Of a stretch of 64,000 bases of DNA, positions 11,151-57,319 are shown piece by piece. The stretch is from the NCBI RefSeq assembly GCF_001544075.1, contig NZ_BCNT01000008.1, forward strand, positions 124,001 through 188,000, read 5' to 3'. The notes under the pieces were generated by a model. That model saw nothing but the letters and a program-made list of their open reading frames with translations, was not told where the DNA came from and did no database searches. The translations under genes were made by a program, and so were the position numbers. Within the stretch, counting starts at the first letter, position 1; each line of letters opens with the position of its first letter. The DNA is from Comamonas terrae (lineage in GTDB: Bacteria > Pseudomonadota > Gammaproteobacteria > Burkholderiales > Burkholderiaceae_C).

Positions 11151-12344
11151 TCAGGCCGGCCGGAGTTCCGGCAACGCCGGCACACCCGCCTGGCCTGAAT
11201 CGGCTTCGGCCTCGCAAATGCAATTGCGGCCCTGCTTCTTGGCCTGGTAGAGGGCGCGATCGGAACGATCAAGCAGGTGGAAAAGCCCGTCGCCCTCGTT
11301 CGCATACGCAATGCCGAAACTGGCGGTGGGGTGCATTTCCCCATTCACCAGGCCCGCGGATATTGCATTGAACGAAGCCTGGACATCTTGGGCATATTTC
11401 CGCGCGGATAGGGAATTGTCCGCCATGAGGAAGACAGCAAACTCCTCGCCACCGAGCCGGCCTATGAGGGTTCTAGGGGGCGCATTTTCCTTGAGCTTGT
11501 CGGAAAATGCGCGTATTACCCTGTCGCCCGCGAGATGCCCGAAGCTGTCGTTTATCTTCTTGAAATGATCCAGGTCGCACATGACCATTGCCGCCGGCCT
11601 GTCCGAGGTTTCACCGAACAGCACGGCATCCGCACGCTTTTCGAACCCTCTGCGGTTCAGCAGGCCCGACAATGAATCGGTAAGCGCTTCCGCCTTGATT
11701 TTCTCCATGACATCGGAGGCCATGACGGCAAAAATACCCACAGCCAGCGCGACGCTGACGATGGCATCGGATACGGAGGTGAAAATCCAGTAGAAGTCCG
11801 GGTAATCCATCTCGAAAAAGGCACTGCCCAGGATGATGAGCGGCCTTGCAAGGGTCATGGCGCCGGCAATCACCACCTGTATGCCCAGGAACTGCGCCAC
11901 AGGGTTTTCATCTCCGGCCTTTCTTATATGACCGAGGAACACCAGGAAAATGGCGAACAATCCCAGATTGATGACAACACCTCTTTCCTGCAACCCGCTG
12001 TCCATGGACATGAAATACTGCAGCCCGGCCATGGTCACGGTGAAAATAAAAGCCAGTAACTTGAATCTTGGCGCCTGATGGGAACGCTGCGCATAGGCAA
12101 TGACCAAAAGCGCGGTGGTGATCAGTATCATGGCATTGGAGATCTGCCGCAACACCATGTCGCTGTATTTCAGCGAAACATAAAGAATGAGAAAGCACAA
12201 GGCCCGCATCAGGTATGAAAAGACCAAAATAGCAATGAATCTTGATTTTTTCTGCGTGCGCCATAGCAAATAGAATCCAGCCGCAAAAAAAGCAGACATG
12301 ATGGGATTAAATATCAGAAATACTATATTCAATTCCTTGCTCAT
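11151..12344 (-). CDS. Membrane-bound diguanylate cyclase (GGDEF)
   Basis: 397 aa. The first 210 residues hold about seven transmembrane helices and no recognised soluble sensor. The C-terminal half is a GGDEF domain: substrate-binding region SGLLNRRGFEKRAD, metal region VMCDLDHFKKINDSFGH and the active-site motif GRLGGEEFAVF. The inhibitory RxxD motif usually found just before the active site is replaced by PPRT, so product inhibition may be absent. It makes cyclic di-GMP at the inner membrane. Two HD-GYP proteins at 35-38 kb may do the opposite reaction. Bases 12345-12610 upstream are AT-richer than average and hold no further gene. Confidence 0.9.
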   Translation of the reverse strand: MSKELNIVFLIFNPIMSAFFAAGFYLLWRTQKKSRFIAILVFSYLMRALCFLILYVSLKYSDMVLRQISNAMILITTALLVIAYAQRSHQAPRFKLLAFIFTVTMAGLQYFMSMDSGLQERGVVINLGLFAIFLVFLGHIRKAGDENPVAQFLGIQVVIAGAMTLARPLIILGSAFFEMDYPDFYWIFTSVSDAIVSVALAVGIFAVMASDVMEKIKAEALTDSLSGLLNRRGFEKRADAVLFGETSDRPAAMVMCDLDHFKKINDSFGHLAGDRVIRAFSDKLKENAPPRTLIGRLGGEEFAVFLMADNSLSARKYAQDVQASFNAISAGLVNGEMHPTASFGIAYANEGDGLFHLLDRSDRALYQAKKQGRNCICEAEADSGQAGVPALPELRPA

Positions 12345-12610
12345 TGCTTGCCTCTTTTGAAAATCTATCGACTCAAATTTCCATTCGCCTGAAAATTAAT
12401 ATTAGAAATACGGACAAACCATGAAAATCTGATGATTTTTGCATTTTCACGCCGATCGTTAAATGCGAACTCCAGCTGAACCACAAAATTTTGCATTCCC
12501 CGTACTGACCGAGGACAGTTCGGCCATGGCCTTCCTGCCCACCCCCGCGGCCTTCCGGCGTCCGCGCCAGCCCATGCTATAAGTCCCGATTTCACCCCTG
12601 CAAGCCACCC

Positions 12611-51053: not shown

Positions 51054-51100
51054 TAAAGGGCCGGCCGGGGCTTTGAGCTTCGGCTGGTTTCCGGAAATGG

Positions 51101-51125
51101 AAAACGCCCGCAGGGGCGTTTTTTA
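51101..51125 (+). terminator. Terminator after katG
   Basis: AACGCCC / GGGCGTT stem with a short loop followed by a run of T, about 50 bp after the katG stop codon. It also marks the end of the GC-rich backbone before the low-GC island. Confidence 0.85.
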
Positions 51126-51308
51126 TTGGCTGCTAGTGACTGTGGATTCAACCGATCAACCCAAAGCGGTATTCTAAAAATATTGACTCTAAGCCGGAAA
51201 TCAGACATTCCTGATTGGCTCGTCCCGGCTGCAATCAAAGGCCGATATGTGTATAAACTGACATTCATTACATACAGCGTTCAAGATTGCCTTCGTCGGC
51301 AAGCTTGC

Positions 51309-53219
51309 TCAAAGTACTTTGATTCTGTCAGCAATTACTGAAATTTCCTCTTGGGCAAACTCTGGTAATTCGTGCCAATACTCTGTTGAGATGAGGCGAA
51401 TCAGCTTGTCAAGTTGCTTGGACTTGTAGCCTTCCGGTAGATACGACTCCAGGCTGCCTCTAGATAGGACAAAGATATGCTCGAGCCGTTTAGCAACGAT
51501 ATAGTCGCGGATCGTGTGCTGCTGGTGATCATTCAGGTCCGTTTGCAACCGACCTCTGCGCAACTTGATGTGCTCCCAAAGTGACCTCAAGCGATCAAGA
51601 TCGCCAGTTGAAACGGCGTGATCGAGCTGAACCAACAATGAATCACCGTCTGTGCTGGTCGGATCATCAATGACTGCTTTCTTGAACTCGTTTTCGTGAA
51701 GAGTAAAGAATCCCTTGATTTCCGGCGACCCTATCTGTTTCAGGTAGTCACGATCCGCGATGACTGCATAAGGGACTTTGCAGGCTTCAAGGAGGGCCGC
51801 ATAAGGTGCAAAAAAACCCTTCCCTCCAACGCTGATCACTTCACAAGTACGGATGGTGCCCGATGTCACACCAAGGCGATTGAAAACGGATTCGAAAAAT
51901 ATCCGATCTGAAATGCCTTCAACGAGAACGACCTTGTCAGCAAAGAACATCCGCTCGTTGTTCTGACTGTTGACAATGGCAAACAGATGCTTGGGTTCGG
52001 GCAAGCTGCTGTTGTTGAGACGAACAATCGCACTTCGTTGCTCAGTGCTGTAGACACGCGATACGTACTCGATGGACGACGGCGACACAAAGACGGCTGA
52101 GTGCGTTGCCAGCAGGAATTGGTTGCCAGTTTCCAAAGCCAGCCGTTCAAAAAGCCCCAGCAATGTTTTTTGCCAGCGCGGGTGCAGATGCAGCTCCGGT
52201 TCGTCGATGACAATCAGCGCATCTCTCACATTGAGAGCATATATGGCGAAGAGGTAGGTCAGTAACTCTTTCTCGCCCGAAGATGCGTTTCCTGCCAAGA
52301 ACTTCGATCCCTGTTTCTCCAACTGGATGTCGTAGCTGTTATTCATGGGATCGGTACAGACAAGATCCCATGCATAGCCCAAATCCAACAAGACGGCAGT
52401 CAGCGATTGAATCGCTGGATCATTGCGGAAATCTTTCTTGGCGCTCCCGTTGTCCTTGATTTCCAGCAGTCGGTATTTCTTGGCAATTCTTCCCACCGCG
52501 AGGCTCATCGTCGAAGCTCCCAGTCGGGAGGATGCAGCATCCACGGAACGCTTGTAGTCAAATTCGTTGTATCCAGACAGATTGACCGAGGATTGAACGC
52601 CATTGGATGCACGGTTGATGGGCATCGAGAGCATAGGCGTAGACAGGCTGGCCATTCCCAACTCCCCTCGCAGCCACGCGTCGACCTCGTAAAGCGCCAG
52701 ATAGCGCTGATAAATGTGTTCGGCTGAATCGCTTGTGCCTTGAAGCCCGCTGTTGACGATTCGGTAGACGAACCGCTGGCCTACTCGAAGCAAGGACAAG
52801 TCCCATTCAGCAGCCTCCCGAATCGATGCACCGACGTACTTGCGCTCGGTCCTGGCTGCCACATCATGAGCCGATGCCTTCATGGATGCCATGTTTTCAA
52901 TGTCGCGGCTCGTAACTTCTAGCTCTAGCTCGACTACTTGCTCGCGGCCCTTACCCTGACTATGCGGCTCCAAGGAAGTGCTATGCAACATGTCATTGGC
53001 AACGAACTCATGCCGATCAGGGTTGTCTGCCGTAGCCGATTTTCTGGGGATGATGGATGAGAGCAAATGCCTGCGCAGTATGGTGGTCGTCGTATCTAGC
53101 AGATTGGTCTTGCCGCCGCCGTTTGGACCAATGATGATGGAAATGTCTCCTTCAAGCAGTAACTCTGCAGGTTCAAGGAAACTCCTGACGTTTTCCACCC
53201 GCACACGACGTAGCTTCAT
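51309..53219 (-). CDS. OLD-family ATPase with TOPRIM nuclease domain
   Basis: 636 aa. SMC/RecF-like ABC ATPase: Walker A GPNGGGKTNLL at 31-41, signature region NASSGEKELLTYL, Walker B LIVIDEPELHLHPRW and H-loop LLATHSAVFVSP. A C-terminal TOPRIM domain follows, with Glu in VVLVEGISDRIFFESVF and the Asp pair in YAVIADRDYLKQ. This is the layout of class 1 OLD nucleases, which include anti-phage proteins. GC content and codon use are visibly lower than in the flanking genes, a sign of transfer. It lies at the head of a gene island and is divergent from the receiver/HATPase pair. Confidence 0.88.
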   Translation of the reverse strand: MKLRRVRVENVRSFLEPAELLLEGDISIIIGPNGGGKTNLLDTTTTILRRHLLSSIIPRKSATADNPDRHEFVANDMLHSTSLEPHSQGKGREQVVELELEVTSRDIENMASMKASAHDVAARTERKYVGASIREAAEWDLSLLRVGQRFVYRIVNSGLQGTSDSAEHIYQRYLALYEVDAWLRGELGMASLSTPMLSMPINRASNGVQSSVNLSGYNEFDYKRSVDAASSRLGASTMSLAVGRIAKKYRLLEIKDNGSAKKDFRNDPAIQSLTAVLLDLGYAWDLVCTDPMNNSYDIQLEKQGSKFLAGNASSGEKELLTYLFAIYALNVRDALIVIDEPELHLHPRWQKTLLGLFERLALETGNQFLLATHSAVFVSPSSIEYVSRVYSTEQRSAIVRLNNSSLPEPKHLFAIVNSQNNERMFFADKVVLVEGISDRIFFESVFNRLGVTSGTIRTCEVISVGGKGFFAPYAALLEACKVPYAVIADRDYLKQIGSPEIKGFFTLHENEFKKAVIDDPTSTDGDSLLVQLDHAVSTGDLDRLRSLWEHIKLRRGRLQTDLNDHQQHTIRDYIVAKRLEHIFVLSRGSLESYLPEGYKSKQLDKLIRLISTEYWHELPEFAQEEISVIADRIKVL

Positions 53220-53697
53220 TGTAATCTCTCTTGCTTGTTAATGTGGCACCAGCTTGGTGGTGGCACTTTTTGTGTATTGGCCTTCGAGTGATTCAATTTT
53301 AGATAGCAGTCATTTCCCGATGACCCCAACTGGCCGGTAGTGTAAGTGCACGGATGTGCCAGGAAGCGGACACACTCGATCCGCGAGCCTAACCGGAGAA
53401 GTCAGCTGTCAGCGAGGTCTACGAACTGGTGCTGTCGGCCATTAGGGCAGCCTTACCCAAGGTCGGCTTTGCGGGTAGCGCATCTTCCACCTCGACAGTT
53501 AGGGGCCAGCAGGAGGAGAGCCCACACTGGTCGGTGTGTACTACAAGCTCGATCTCATCCCGCGTGGGGAGCATCAATTTTGCCGCCAGTACGGTGTGCT
53601 ATCTTTAAATGTAAACAATTGCTTCAATTCCTATAGATACTTGGCGCCAATGAGACTGGAACGTCATAAGCCACTTTTTGATATCTATAAATGATTG
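53220..53697. other. Long divergent intergenic region of the island
   Basis: About 480 bp between the OLD gene and the receiver gene. It carries the two divergent promoters at its AT-rich edges. The middle (about 53330-53560) is GC-richer than the genes beside it and holds only broken short frames, which suggests a decayed fragment of older DNA. No known gene, RNA or repeat is recognised in it. Confidence 0.4.
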
Positions 53698-54348
53698 ATG
53701 TCTCAAACTCAACCATCATCTCTTTTTATGACCGAATTCACCCTCGACACCGTCAATAAAATTGTCTCCGTCATTGCAGGCTTGCTTGCGATAGGAGGCG
53801 CCATCCTCTTGCGGCTCCGCAAGAAACGTTCGGAAGATACTCAGGCCGATAACCCGTCAACGGCCAGCAGTACGACCAACCAGACTGTGACGGTAACTGT
53901 TGGGAGCCCAGCGGAACCGCAAATGCTCGTATCTACGACACAACCGCCTACGCCGAATGACGTGGTAGAGCTTAAACGAACTTCGCAGATCCTCTTTATT
54001 GACGATGATCGCGGATTTAAAATTGTTGGCATACTTAAAAAGATGGGCTGGGAAAACACAAAGCTCGTCACTGACATATCCTCACTCGAGCAATCTCAAT
54101 TACTTAATGCCGACGTAATTTTTGTAGATATTCAGGGTGTTGGCCGGATCATGCAATATAGTGACGAGGGGCTAGGACTGGCGCTTGCCATAAAGCGTAG
54201 ATATCCAGCAAAAAAGGTAGTGATTTATTCGGCAGAAGAAAAGGGGGCACGCTTTCACGAAGCACTACAAGAGGCAGATTATTCACTCCCCAAAACAGCG
54301 GAGCCAATTAGATTCGAGGACACTATTGTTCGAGTTCTCTCCAAATGA
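53698..54348 (+). CDS. Membrane-anchored receiver-domain protein
   Basis: 216 aa. One transmembrane helix (21-40: KIVSVIAGLLAIGGAILLRL) is followed by basic residues, a Ser/Thr/Pro-rich linker (45-94) and a complete receiver domain (95-213): acidic triad IDDD at 101-104, phosphoacceptor Asp144 in VIFVDIQG, Ser178 in VVIYSAEE and Lys199 in SLPKTAEP. There is no DNA-binding or enzyme output domain, so output must come through the membrane anchor or a partner. It overlaps the HATPase gene by four bases. Low GC like its neighbours. Start at 53698 is preferred; ATG at 53728 is possible. Confidence 0.75.
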   Translation: MSQTQPSSLFMTEFTLDTVNKIVSVIAGLLAIGGAILLRLRKKRSEDTQADNPSTASSTTNQTVTVTVGSPAEPQMLVSTTQPPTPNDVVELKRTSQILFIDDDRGFKIVGILKKMGWENTKLVTDISSLEQSQLLNADVIFVDIQGVGRIMQYSDEGLGLALAIKRRYPAKKVVIYSAEEKGARFHEALQEADYSLPKTAEPIRFEDTIVRVLSK

Positions 54349-55367
54349 AAAATCCGACCCAGATCACAATTTGGATTGCCAATCGCAGCGAACCCCTGCT
54401 TAGCCAAATCCCCCAGGCAGTCCTGCAGCAATGCGTTGAGCAGTTGCCGTCGGCAGGTACTTTAACTACTGTGGTTGAAGGTAAGAAGTCCCGCATCCTT
54501 CGAAAATCAGTGGATGAGTACTCGGCAATCGCTTTCTCAGTCGATGTAGATCGAATAAAGAGCAAGAAACTTCTGGAGTCAGAGATTGATGCCATGCTCG
54601 CAGTGGCTCCGACTGTGGAGTTGTCCATTCAACGCTCCGAGGGAAGAACGCGAAGACTCCTTCACAATCTAAAGTCTCTAACGGCGAAGACTTCGCAGGA
54701 AGTATTCTTACTTGCGCAGCAAGATCGACTCATTGGGAATCCAAGAGAGGTAGTCCCATATCTCGCATCAGAGATTCGAGACAACCTAGAAGGAACGGCA
54801 CGCGCACTGCTTGAAATACTGAAGCACCAAGCTGCGCAGAAAGCAGAGTACACCGCGTTTGATCGCCTTTCCGGAAAACTGGAAAAAAGCAATTCCGAGA
54901 TGCATGATGTACATCGCGTCTTAATGAATGTCTTCTATCTCTTTTTTGGCGAGTTTATCGCCAAGAAGGTTCGCGCAGAAGTTGAGCGCACGCGTATTCA
55001 GGCTCGCTTTGACTACGACTCCATCCATGTCTGCATCTATTATCTCGTTGAGAATGCGGCTAAGTACACGCGTCCTGATAGCGATTTTTCGGTCTCTGTA
55101 TCCCAGAGCTCCGACGGATTCGTTGATATTCGCTTTGTCATGGAGAGTCTCGCTATCAAACCAGACGAGCAGGATTTAATTTTTGAGGAAGGCTACTCCG
55201 GTTCAAACGCGATTGACTCGAAGCTCCACGGAGCCGGTCTCGGACTATATCTCGCCCGCTCAATGGCTCGAATTAACTATGGGAATCTAAACGTCTTGGC
55301 GGGACTCCCTCTTCGCGGCTCCCAATACGCGAGGAACACCTTTGTTCTCACGATTCCGGGAAATTGA
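54345..55367 (+). CDS. Soluble histidine-kinase-like HATPase protein
   Basis: 340 aa. The C-terminal third is an HATPase domain: N box YYLVENAAKYTR (Asn237), acidic switch LIFEEGYSGSNA, and G box HGAGLGLYLARSMARINYGN (296-300 Gly-rich). A possible phosphoacceptor His107 lies in RRLLHNLKSLTAKTS, and the region between looks helical. No transmembrane segment and no known sensor domain. It overlaps the receiver gene and is its obvious partner: a cytosolic kinase coupled to a membrane-tethered receiver. The N-terminal 100 residues could be a sensor of no known family. Confidence 0.78.
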   Translation: MKNPTQITIWIANRSEPLLSQIPQAVLQQCVEQLPSAGTLTTVVEGKKSRILRKSVDEYSAIAFSVDVDRIKSKKLLESEIDAMLAVAPTVELSIQRSEGRTRRLLHNLKSLTAKTSQEVFLLAQQDRLIGNPREVVPYLASEIRDNLEGTARALLEILKHQAAQKAEYTAFDRLSGKLEKSNSEMHDVHRVLMNVFYLFFGEFIAKKVRAEVERTRIQARFDYDSIHVCIYYLVENAAKYTRPDSDFSVSVSQSSDGFVDIRFVMESLAIKPDEQDLIFEEGYSGSNAIDSKLHGAGLGLYLARSMARINYGNLNVLAGLPLRGSQYARNTFVLTIPGN

Positions 55368-55374
55368 GCGTGCG

Positions 55375-56700
55375 CGGAGAGACATCTCACCTCGAACGTT
55401 AAGCACCCGCTTTGACAGCTCATCTCACCCAAGCCAGCTTCCGCTCAGGGTCGACATGAGCCTGCTGGGCACGCAGAAGCGGTAATTCGAGCCGGTACGC
55501 AGTGAGCCGCGCAATCGAGCGGCGGCTCCCAAGGATGAAGCTGATCTTGCCCCCGTAGTTCCGGACACCGTCCAGTCGCTAAGGTAGCCCTGATGGGCCG
55601 GGTGACTCTGCTGTCGTCGGAACTCCCTGGGCGACATCATCTTCAAACTCGAATGCGAGTGGATTTCGTTGAAGTGCTCGAACGCACCCGGCAATTGCGC
55701 CAACACGGTCGGCGCATCGCGCAGGTCCATGCAGCTCATGTAGTCACGCTTGAAGGTGTTGACGAAGCTCTCGGCCATTCCATTGCTTTGCGGGCTGCAT
55801 ACCGGCGTATTGATTGGCTTGAGCCCCAGTGACTTGGCAATACCCCGCGTCTCGTGCGCGATATAGGCGCTGCCGTTGTCAGTGAGGAACTCCAATTCAC
55901 GCTCCAGGGGCACGGCTTCAACCGTGCCAAAGCGCCGCTCCACGGCTTCCACCAGCATGTCGCGCACAGGCTCTCCCGCAAGTCCCTTGCCCTCCCAAGC
56001 CCGCCAGGCCAGGATCTCCCGGTCGCAGCAGTCCTTGGCGAAGGTGGCTGTGACCGTCTCGCCCGAATCGCGCTTGAACTCAAAACCGTCAGAGCACCAG
56101 CGCATGTTGCTCATCGGCACACTGACCTAGCCATCATGAATACGGCTCGAATGCCGTCGCTTGGGCGCCTTGGGCAACAGCAGTCGATGCTGCGCCATGA
56201 CCCGGTAGATGCGCTTGTGGTTCAGCACCTGTTGACCTTGCGAACGTCGCTCTCGATTGAGCAGCGCACCGGCGCGGCGATAGCCATAGGCTGGGCAACT
56301 CGGCAATGTGGCGCCGCAGGTCAGCCAGCAAGAGCTCATCCTGGACCGGAGTGCGGCCTCTGCGGTTGTCCTGCCAGTGGCCAGAGCGGTGATACCGCAC
56401 ATGCAGATTCGAGCGCGCCACGCCCAGCACCGAGCAGACCGACTTCATCGGTCGTCCCCAGGCAACAAGGGCGAGCGCGCAATCCACTTTTTTGCTGCGG
56501 CGAGCTCCACGGCTTCCTTGAGGATCTCGTTCTCCAAAGTCTTTTTTCCCAGCACACGTTGCAGCTTGGCGATCTCGGCGCGAGCTGCGGCCATTTCCGG
56601 AGGTGACGCAACCGGGCCAGATAAGCGCGGCGCTCAGCGACAGGTGTTAGCGATTGCTGCCATTCATGTACAGGATTGCGAGTGACTCAGATCAGCCTGT
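55375..56700. mobile_element. IS3-family insertion sequence remnant
   Basis: The transposase pseudogene with its short flanks, lying at the right edge of the low-GC island. Exact ends are not resolved because no convincing inverted repeats or target-site duplication are visible. Its place next to the OLD and receiver genes fits a history of insertion and rearrangement in this region. Confidence 0.6.
55425..56690 (-). pseudogene. Inactivated IS3-family transposase (orfA/orfB)
   Basis: Read on the minus strand, the end of OrfA is seen as [20 protein letters not shown], followed by [11 protein letters not shown] and an overlapping OrfB starting [20 protein letters not shown]. OrfB then carries an extra C near 56290 after HIAELPS (the frame should continue SYGYRRAGALL), and an in-frame TAG at 56127-56129 where Lys is expected after SSRIHDG. 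The rest (FLTDNGSAYIAHETRGIAKS, ESFVNTFKRDYM) is the integrase core with its DDE residues. Two separate lesions make the element dead. Terminal inverted repeats were not found. Confidence 0.85.
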
Positions 56701-56745
56701 AGCTGACCCCGACACCTTCGTTGAAAACACCGCTTCACCCAAATA

Positions 56746-56771
56746 AAAAGCGCTCCACGGAGCGCTTTTTC
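56746..56771 (-). terminator. Terminator of the DUF6882-like gene
   Basis: AAAAAGCGCTCC / GGAGCGCTTTTT nearly perfect hairpin with a two-base loop and T-run on the minus strand, about 20 bp after the gene end at 56792. Confidence 0.85.
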
Positions 56772-56791
56772 CATATCCACACCACAACGCC

Positions 56792-57319
56792 TCAATTGGG
56801 CAACTGTTCCTCCCCCATCGCCACCTGCAGATGCAGGATGCTGAAGTACAGCGTCACATCGCCCTGCTTGTCGACGAAGGTGCCCAGCGCGCGCTGCAGG
56901 CGGGCGGCGATGCACAGGCATTCCGTGGCTTCGGGGCGGCCGCCCTGGATGCGGGGGGTGGTCAGCAGGGCAAGATGGTGCTCGCGGCCGAAGTCGTGTA
57001 CGACTTCCAGGGCTTGGCCGTGCTGCCGGGGAATCGCCTCGTTGGCCCAGCTCCACAGAAAGCTGCCTTCGCTGTCGCTGGTGGTGCCGACCAGGCATAC
57101 GGTGGCCACGACTTCGTGCAGCGGGCCTTCGAACACCAGGGTGGCGCTGTCCAGGTCCCAGCGGTAGGCGGGAGAGCCTTGCAGGCCGAACTGGCGCGGC
57201 CATTCGGCGTTGCGCTGCATCATGGTTTCGACGGCCTCGCGGCTCCAGGCGGCCCAGTCGGTGGCCGTGCCGCAAGCGGCGCCAGGGGCGGTATTGTCGG
57301 CGGAAGGGGTTTCGCTCAT
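56792..57319 (-). CDS. DUF6882-like conserved protein
   Basis: 175 aa from the ATG at 57319. Soluble. The pattern MMQRNAEWPRQFGLQGSPAY, then FLWSWANEAIPRQHGQALEV and SILHLQVAMGEEQLPN resembles the DUF6882 family of bacterial proteins, whose function is unknown. The WSWAN segment is the best marker. It ends at a strong terminator and lies 41 bp upstream of the hydrolase gene in map terms but on the same strand, so the hydrolase may read into it. Confidence 0.7.
   Translation of the reverse strand: MSETPSADNTAPGAACGTATDWAAWSREAVETMMQRNAEWPRQFGLQGSPAYRWDLDSATLVFEGPLHEVVATVCLVGTTSDSEGSFLWSWANEAIPRQHGQALEVVHDFGREHHLALLTTPRIQGGRPEATECLCIAARLQRALGTFVDKQGDVTLYFSILHLQVAMGEEQLPN

What the first reader, a model, noticed from the sequence alone, without database searches (positions are those of the whole stretch)
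51309..55367. Low-GC island: OLD nuclease divergent from a membrane-tethered receiver and a soluble HATPase kinase
The three genes are compositionally distinct from the flanking core and end in a dead IS3 element. OLD-family TOPRIM ATPases are established anti-phage proteins. The second unit is a minimal two-component pair in which the receiver is anchored by one helix and has no output domain, while the kinase has no membrane or known sensor domain. Two-component-like defence systems (for example Detocs) exist, but this architecture is different as far as I can see. It may be a new defence or signalling module.
Basis: partly seen in the sequence, partly recalled or inferred. Interest (0 to 1): 0.75.

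Follow-up and report, generated by a model that had tools for sequence, protein, structure and literature searches.

The report
Mobile kinase-receiver pair beside OLD nuclease
A small foreign-looking stretch of this bacterial chromosome carries a single DNA-cutting defence-type gene and, next to it, a two-gene signalling pair that a public tool already lists as an untested candidate anti-virus system; relatives of the pair ride on plasmids and inside a dormant virus without the nuclease.

Summary
51309-53219(-) is an intact-looking OLD nuclease, 53698-54348(+) a 216-aa membrane-tethered receiver, 54345-55367(+) a 340-aa soluble histidine-kinase-like protein, in the lowest-GC segment of the window. 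The island fills a site behind katG that is empty in two same-genus genomes and holds other genes in three.

The pair is already catalogued: PADLOC-DB 2.0.0 matches PDC-M43A (1.7e-86) and PDC-M43B (2e-98), a phage-defence candidate whose name no paper in the searched library contains. OLD is a separate unit: no OLD match near the pair in eight other loci.

New here: the two genes are adjacent in 9 of 9 loci, and lower in GC than their surroundings in 8 of 8 measured. They are nearly the only cargo of a 6.2-kb plasmid and sit between portal and head-protease genes of a prophage in a same-genus genome. The receiver keeps its phosphorylation residues. The kinase keeps its H, N and G2 boxes, but 9 of 9 members lack the Asp/Asn of the G1 box that 42 of 42 comparison kinases have.

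Likely a mobile anti-phage signalling pair; defence, phosphotransfer and a membrane effect are inferred.

The parts
51309..53219 (-). OLD-family nuclease (ABC ATPase + TOPRIM), 636 aa; independent single-gene unit of the island
   Evidence: AAA_21 3e-25, OLD-like_TOPRIM 2.7e-17; PADLOC Old 3.8e-32; closest solved relative 6p74 OLD endonuclease 5e-16; Walker A 31, signature-like SSGEKE 313, Walker B 335, TOPRIM VEG 433 and DRD 489 present
53698..54348 (+). PDC-M43A: receiver domain (about residues 96-214) on one N-terminal transmembrane helix (about 20-40) and a linker; no output domain
   Evidence: PADLOC PDC-M43A 1.7e-86; invariant D102, D103, D144, K199 in 8 sequences; hydropathy
54345..55367 (+). 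PDC-M43B: soluble histidine-kinase-like protein, H107 in the H box, N237/K240/Y241 in the N box, G296/G298/G300 in the G2 box, G1 box degenerate (VMESLAIK)
   Evidence: PADLOC PDC-M43B 2e-98; HATPase_c 3.4e-9; alignments
53220..53697 (.). 478-bp divergent intergenic region between OLD and the pair (promoters of both presumed here, not tested); no match in plasmids, single copy in the genome
55425..56611 (-). decayed IS3-family transposase at the right edge of the island
   Evidence: broken frames; IS3-family plasmid matches over 55542-56593
51054..56796 (.). whole variable segment between katG and the DUF6882 gene; nearly empty (0.13-0.22 kb) or with other genes in same-genus genomes

Best explanation
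The island is a horizontally acquired segment in a variable site behind katG that carries two independent defence-type units: a single-gene OLD nuclease, and a PDC-M43 pair. The pair is a self-contained, mobile signalling module. A soluble kinase-like sensor (M43B) and a phosphorylatable receiver held at the inner membrane (M43A) are made from overlapping genes. Most likely phage infection changes M43B activity, this changes the phosphorylation state of the M43A receiver, and the membrane-bound receivers change their assembly at the membrane, so that the receiver protein itself is the effector (membrane damage or growth arrest). Shown here: family membership, gene coupling, conserved catalytic residues of the receiver, conserved H box, N box and G2 box with a family-wide change of the G1 box in the kinase, the single membrane helix (by hydropathy), mobile settings, and no recurring third gene. 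Inferred: autophosphorylation, phosphotransfer, the trigger, the membrane effect and phage defence itself.
For: Both proteins match PADLOC phage-defence candidate PDC-M43 over nearly full length. Adjacent receiver-kinase genes in 9 of 9 loci, gaps -8 to +10 nt. Pair GC is below the rest of its locus in 8 of 8 measured loci. No third protein recurs within 8 kb: all-against-all comparison of the ORFs of nine loci gave only two matches outside the pair, an IstB/DnaC-like ATPase (L035, L146) and an EAL-type protein (L036, L066). Sporadic: 2 of 53 genomes of the genus, 1 strong match in 200 of the family, 3 of 369 in the class, own genome counted each time. Setting: three plasmids, two conjugative and one of 6.2 kb that carries little else; a prophage late operon between portal and head protease; about 4-6 kb from CBASS-type genes on the Shewanella plasmid and 5 kb from a PDC-S60-like protein on the E. 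coli plasmid. Empty and alternative sites in the same genus. Receiver active-site residues invariant; kinase H box aligned to that of a solved sensor kinase. All 5 close receivers have an N-terminal hydrophobic helix; the 4 distant ones lack it.
Against: No direct evidence of defence: PDC-M43 is a computed candidate, and two other PADLOC candidates, PDC-M63AB and PDC-S04, showed no activity in one native-host test (PMC12409345, passages). One distant pair lies beside metal-efflux-like genes (L065), one mostly beside core genes (L067), and in two others I recognised nothing defensive (L066, L068); these neighbours were only read, not scanned. 5 of 10 plasmid neighbours scanned gave no PADLOC match. 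The G1 box of the kinase is degenerate, so phosphotransfer may not happen. No known effector domain was found. The four distant pairs match the PADLOC models only weakly (best model per protein 7.6e-8 to 1.1e-16). Defence-island enrichment was not measured.
Confidence: 0.58

Rival explanations
1. The pair is an ordinary accessory stress- or signal-transduction module with a membrane-docked receiver as a phosphate sink or docking partner for a host protein. It spreads on mobile elements but is not antiviral.
For: Receiver catalytic residues and kinase H box are conserved as in ordinary two-component systems; one distant pair lies beside heavy-metal-efflux-like genes (my reading).
Against: No output domain, no recognisable sensor; low-GC mobile settings and a PADLOC candidate name; a prophage and a 6.2-kb plasmid carry it, the latter as near-sole cargo.
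Confidence: 0.25
2. OLD, receiver and kinase form one composite system in which the two-component pair controls the nuclease by signalling or by transcription from the shared intergenic region.
For: Head-to-head arrangement in one low-GC island with a 478-bp shared intergenic region.
Against: No OLD match near the pair in the fetched DNA (6-20 kb each) of 8 of 8 other loci; no DNA-binding or other output domain found in the pair; the OLD protein itself has no relative at 1e-20 in 199 other family genomes (at most six candidates scored per genome).
Confidence: 0.08
3. The kinase is a pseudokinase: with the adenine-reading G1 box lost it binds another nucleotide or none and acts only as a partner or lock of the receiver, so the pair works like a toxin-antitoxin or nucleotide-sensing switch and not by phosphotransfer.
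For: 9 of 9 members lack Asp or Asn at the G1 position, 42 of 42 other kinases retrieved have it.
Against: H107, the N box and the G2 box are invariant and the receiver keeps D102, D103, D144 and K199, which a pure protein-protein switch would not need; a solved sensor kinase (7zp0) also departs from DxGxG in this box (VENPGTPI).
Confidence: 0.3

Closest known systems
PDC-M43 (PADLOC-DB 2.0.0 phage-defence candidate, genes M43A and M43B)
   Same: Both proteins match at 1.7e-86 and 2e-98 over nearly full length.
   Different: No difference found: this is a member. The PADLOC rows give only a name; the settings, residues and membrane anchor described here come from this work.
Detocs (defensive two-component system; three genes, best-described effector a PNP domain)
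   Same: A kinase-like protein working with a receiver that has no output domain (this comparison is partly recalled).
   Different: Two genes instead of three, no receiver-effector fusion or PNP gene seen in the island, receiver membrane-anchored. No Detocs name among the PADLOC matches of receiver and kinase; whether PADLOC 2.0.0 holds Detocs models was not checked.
OLD-family nucleases and Gabija GajA
   Same: The divergent gene has the ABC ATPase and TOPRIM domains; its best solved relatives are 6p74 (OLD) and GajA.
   Different: No GajB-type helicase gene beside it; unrelated to the kinase-receiver pair.
Classical two-component systems
   Same: H box, N box, G2 box and receiver active site conserved.
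   Different: No membrane sensor in the kinase, no output domain in the receiver, degenerate G1 box.
cRec domains of phage and conflict systems (PMC7824862, passages)
   Same: Receiver-like domain with catalytic aspartates in a conflict setting.
   Different: cRec is stated never to occur in histidine-kinase systems; this receiver has a kinase-like gene beside it in 9 of 9 loci.

Membership tests
PDC-M43 (PADLOC) | M43A protein | tested here: met
   PDLC04645 1.7e-86, residues 10-216 of 216
PDC-M43 (PADLOC) | M43B protein | tested here: met
   PDLC04647 2e-98, residues 11-338 of 340
PDC-M43 (PADLOC) | the two genes adjacent | tested here: met
   4-nt overlap; PADLOC's own system rule was not seen
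PDC-M43 (PADLOC) | protects against phage | not testable with these tools
   no paper in the library contains the name
Detocs | three-gene system with an ATP-degrading effector (best-described form) | tested here: not met
   definition from a passage of PMC11249213; between katG and DUF6882 I see no gene besides OLD, the pair and the IS3 remnant; Pfam on OLD and the pair shows no PNP domain
Classical two-component system | phosphoacceptor His in a DHp-like H box | tested here: met
   H107 invariant in 7 sequences and aligned to the H box of 7zp0; activity not tested
Classical two-component system | N, G1, F and G2 boxes of the ATP-binding domain | tested here: not met
   N and G2 met; G1 Asp/Asn absent in 9 of 9 against 42 of 42 others with D (33) or N (9)
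Classical two-component system | receiver with acid pair, phosphoacceptor Asp, Ser/Thr and Lys | tested here: met
   D102, D103, D144, K199 invariant, S178 Ser or Thr in 8 of 8
Pseudo-receiver | lacks key residues for phosphotransfer | tested here: not met
   residues present; definition from the start of the abstract of PMC12632262 in the listing
cRec | never with a histidine kinase | tested here: not met
   kinase-like gene adjacent in 9 of 9 loci; definition from passages of PMC7824862
OLD nuclease | ABC-type ATPase plus OLD TOPRIM with VEG and DxD motifs | tested here: met
   motif roles recalled
Gabija | GajB helicase gene beside GajA | tested here: not met
   neighbours are katG and the receiver gene

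The most novel reading that the evidence does not exclude
PDC-M43 is a distinct kind of immune signalling: a soluble histidine-kinase relative whose adenine-reading pocket has been remodelled family-wide, so that it uses or senses a nucleotide other than plain ATP, sets the phosphorylation state of a receiver that sits in the membrane and is itself the effector. It would be a two-component system without a sensor domain and without an output domain, carried by plasmids and by a prophage as a weapon against rival phages.
Probability: 0.17. Interest if true: 0.78.

Novelty: new member of a known kind. Interest (0 to 1): 0.45.

Why it matters
The pair is a PADLOC candidate that has a name and, as far as my searches went, no description. 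Finding it in a prophage late operon, as almost the sole cargo of a 6.2-kb plasmid, and as two coupled genes in every locus examined suggests that two genes are the whole unit, which makes it easy to test. If it defends, a receiver that is its own membrane-bound effector and a kinase with a remodelled nucleotide pocket would add a signalling logic different from Detocs.

Tried and rejected
Three-gene system with OLD: rejected, no OLD match near the pair in 8 of 8 other loci.

Collection scans for relatives: both genome-contig scans and four viral-contig scans gave no close relative; one search gave two remote HATPase matches, L040 and L041. No match in 50,697 phage records or, by DNA with the E. 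coli plasmid copy, in the 5,426-genome E. coli collection. Plasmids gave three.

Family searches with PDC-M43B are swamped by ordinary kinases (193 of 200 genomes, 11 of 14 controls) and were not used for counting; PDC-M43A was used instead (0 of 14 controls). In one search, 23 of 398 genomes matched but only 3 below 1e-8; the other 20 were not followed up. In some searches (37 of 78 and 6 of 48) only the starting genomes G740 and G455 match strongly; I take the rest for ordinary response regulators and did not inspect them one by one. The second match (G047, 3e-5, 46 positions) was judged chance; its region L070 was fetched and its ORFs listed, but no family-library search was run on it.

Structure prediction: both single-sequence models were poor (mean pLDDT 44 and 45), so no fold search was run.

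The distance-matrix correlation of kinase and receiver (r 0.53, 19 of 5040 permutations) may mostly reflect the split into close and distant groups.

G1-box control: 63 aligned rows; 12 duplicates and one row without the box (the N-terminal piece of the L037 kinase) were dropped, 50 kept. Five family copies (L001, L038, L039, L043, L044) were printed among the 47 'other' kinases because of a naming rule in my script; they are removed in the 42 quoted. The 42 come from the session's searches and are not a random sample.
Full report
OBSERVATION. The 636-aa minus-strand protein carries AAA_21 and OLD-like_TOPRIM domains, matches PADLOC 'Old' best (3.8e-32) and the solved OLD endonuclease 6p74 (5e-16), and keeps Walker A, a signature-like SSGEKE, Walker B and the TOPRIM VEG and DRD motifs (motif roles recalled). 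The 216-aa protein is a receiver behind one hydrophobic helix, the 340-aa protein a soluble HATPase protein. The two genes overlap by 4 nt. The lowest-GC 4-kb segment of the 64-kb window is 51251-55250.

ISLAND. In 26 genomes of the genus the DUF6882 neighbour was found in 19, the own genome included; I fetched its surroundings from 16 of the 18 others. katG was found in the fetched stretch in five of the 16. Two of these have katG and DUF6882 about 0.13 and 0.22 kb apart (L093, L094), and three have 1.3-2.5 kb of other genes there, which I read as ABC-F plus VOC, an APH-like gene plus an RtcB-like gene, and a DUF2314-like gene (names from my reading, not searched). In the other 11 no katG match appeared in the fetched stretch; one of them (L099) has the next neighbours of katG there. 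So the 5.7-kb segment is an insertion at a variable site between the katG terminator and the DUF6882 gene, with a decayed IS3 element at its right edge.

IDENTITY. PADLOC-DB 2.0.0 names the pair PDC-M43A and PDC-M43B. PDC stands for phage-defence candidate, found by 'guilt-by-embedding' and not experimentally validated at release (PMC10855318 and PMC12988326, passages). No paper in the library holds the string PDC-M43; the library lacks most subscription papers and bioRxiv. DefensePredictor (PMC13092281, figure legends and passages) lists HATPase and REC among the abbreviations of its figure of untested predictions; whether that is this family I could not see.

DISTRIBUTION. With receiver models, own genome included: 2 of 53 genomes of the genus; 2 of 200 in the family, one of them a weak 46-position match; 3 of 369 in the class; in the phylum 3 of 398 below 1e-8 and 23 of 398 at 1e-3. 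In another order, 1 of 318, the seed genome itself. Three of 72,556 plasmid records, none of 50,697 phage records. Searches used one receiver model, another, so the numbers are not strictly comparable.

NINE LOCI. Close group: the window; Shewanella baltica pSBAL11701 (L035); an E. coli IncF plasmid (L036); a 6,175-bp Kosakonia cowanii plasmid (L037); the same-genus genome G954 (L146). Distant group: G356, G455, G740, G886 (L065-L068), which match both PADLOC protein sets more weakly. In all nine the receiver gene lies directly upstream of the kinase gene, with gaps of -8 to +10 nt. The five genome loci L065-L068 and L146 were found by the receiver alone, so the partner is an independent finding there; the plasmids were found by the kinase and each has the receiver. 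Pair GC is below the rest of the locus in 8 of 8 measured, from 34.5% against 40.2% (L035) to 27% against 54% (L066); L037 was not measured. An all-against-all comparison of ORFs within 8 kb of the nine pairs found only two matches outside the pair, an IstB/DnaC-like ATPase in L035 and L146 and an EAL-type protein in L036 and L066 (names), so no third gene recurs.

SETTINGS. In G954 the pair (PDC-M43A 1.1e-72, PDC-M43B 7.9e-117) lies between a lambda-type portal gene and a head-protease/capsid gene, with terminase, tail and tape-measure genes around it; in a public phage whose protease gene matches weakly, portal and protease genes overlap directly. The Kosakonia plasmid has, besides the pair, only Rop, a helix-turn-helix protein, DUF2442 and one small hypothetical annotated. 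On the Shewanella plasmid a cyclase C-terminal part (9e-61) and two 2TM effector proteins of CBASS type lie about 4-6 kb upstream of the pair, and on the E. coli plasmid a NACHT protein similar to PDC-S60 (6e-14) lies about 5 kb away; one more Shewanella protein gave a weak PtuB match (5.9e-5), and 5 of the 10 neighbours scanned gave no PADLOC match. Against a defence setting: L065 lies beside metal-efflux-like genes, L067 beside a toxin-antitoxin-like pair but otherwise core genes, and in L066 and L068 I recognised nothing defensive (reading; not scanned).

CHEMISTRY. Receiver: D102, D103, D144 and K199 are invariant in eight sequences and S178 is Ser or Thr; the close group keeps this with G954 included. 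This is the full set for phosphorylation (general knowledge of receivers). Kinase: H107, N237, K240, Y241, G296, G298 and G300 are invariant in seven; a profile of these aligns H107 to the H-box His of the solved sensor kinase 7zp0. The G1 box is different: Met or Ser stands where other kinases have Asp. That this Asp reads the adenine amino group is general knowledge of GHKL ATPases. Solved 7zp0 itself departs from DxGxG, so loss of the strict motif does not prove loss of activity.

ANCHOR. All five close receivers have an N-terminal hydrophobic helix (best 19-residue hydropathy 1.70-2.33) followed by a linker. The four distant receivers have no such helix and a C-terminal extension instead.

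MECHANISM AND VERDICT. Nothing apart from kinase and receiver recurs across loci, so the effector must be one of the two or a host protein. The membrane-anchored receiver is the best candidate; this is inference. The OLD gene is an independent defence-type neighbour: no match near the pair elsewhere, no relative at 1e-20 in the 199 other family genomes, where at most six first-look candidates per genome were scored, and one remote relative on plasmids. The finding is therefore a real island with two separate units, one of them a known but undescribed candidate system.

Noticed in passing
L146:8545-10228 (G954, same genus): PDC-M43 pair inserted between portal and head-protease genes of a prophage, same strand as the late genes, GC 34% against 61%.
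   Followed up: yes
L037 (Kosakonia cowanii 6,175-bp plasmid): Tiny Rop-type plasmid whose only substantial cargo is the PDC-M43 pair; the kinase gene crosses the record start and so is not in PLSDB's gene table.
   Followed up: partly
L092, L096, L100 against L093, L094: The katG 3' end is a variable insertion site in this genus: nearly empty in two genomes and with three different sets of genes in others.
   Followed up: partly
L035:826-3112 (Shewanella plasmid): CBASS-type genes: a cyclase fragment (profile positions 149-295 only), then a 2TM effector, a gene annotated diadenylate cyclase, and a second 2TM effector.
   Followed up: no
window 11151-12344: A second low-GC dip (about 49% at 11501-12500) coincides with a protein that reads like a membrane GGDEF diguanylate cyclase.
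   Followed up: no
window 53346-53636: Stretch with an open frame inside the OLD-receiver intergenic region, no match in plasmids and single copy in the genome; perhaps a remnant of another element.
   Followed up: partly
L065-L068 receiver C-termini: The four distant receivers lack the N-terminal helix but have a C-terminal extension with a mildly hydrophobic tail (hydropathy 0.80-1.53).
   Followed up: partly
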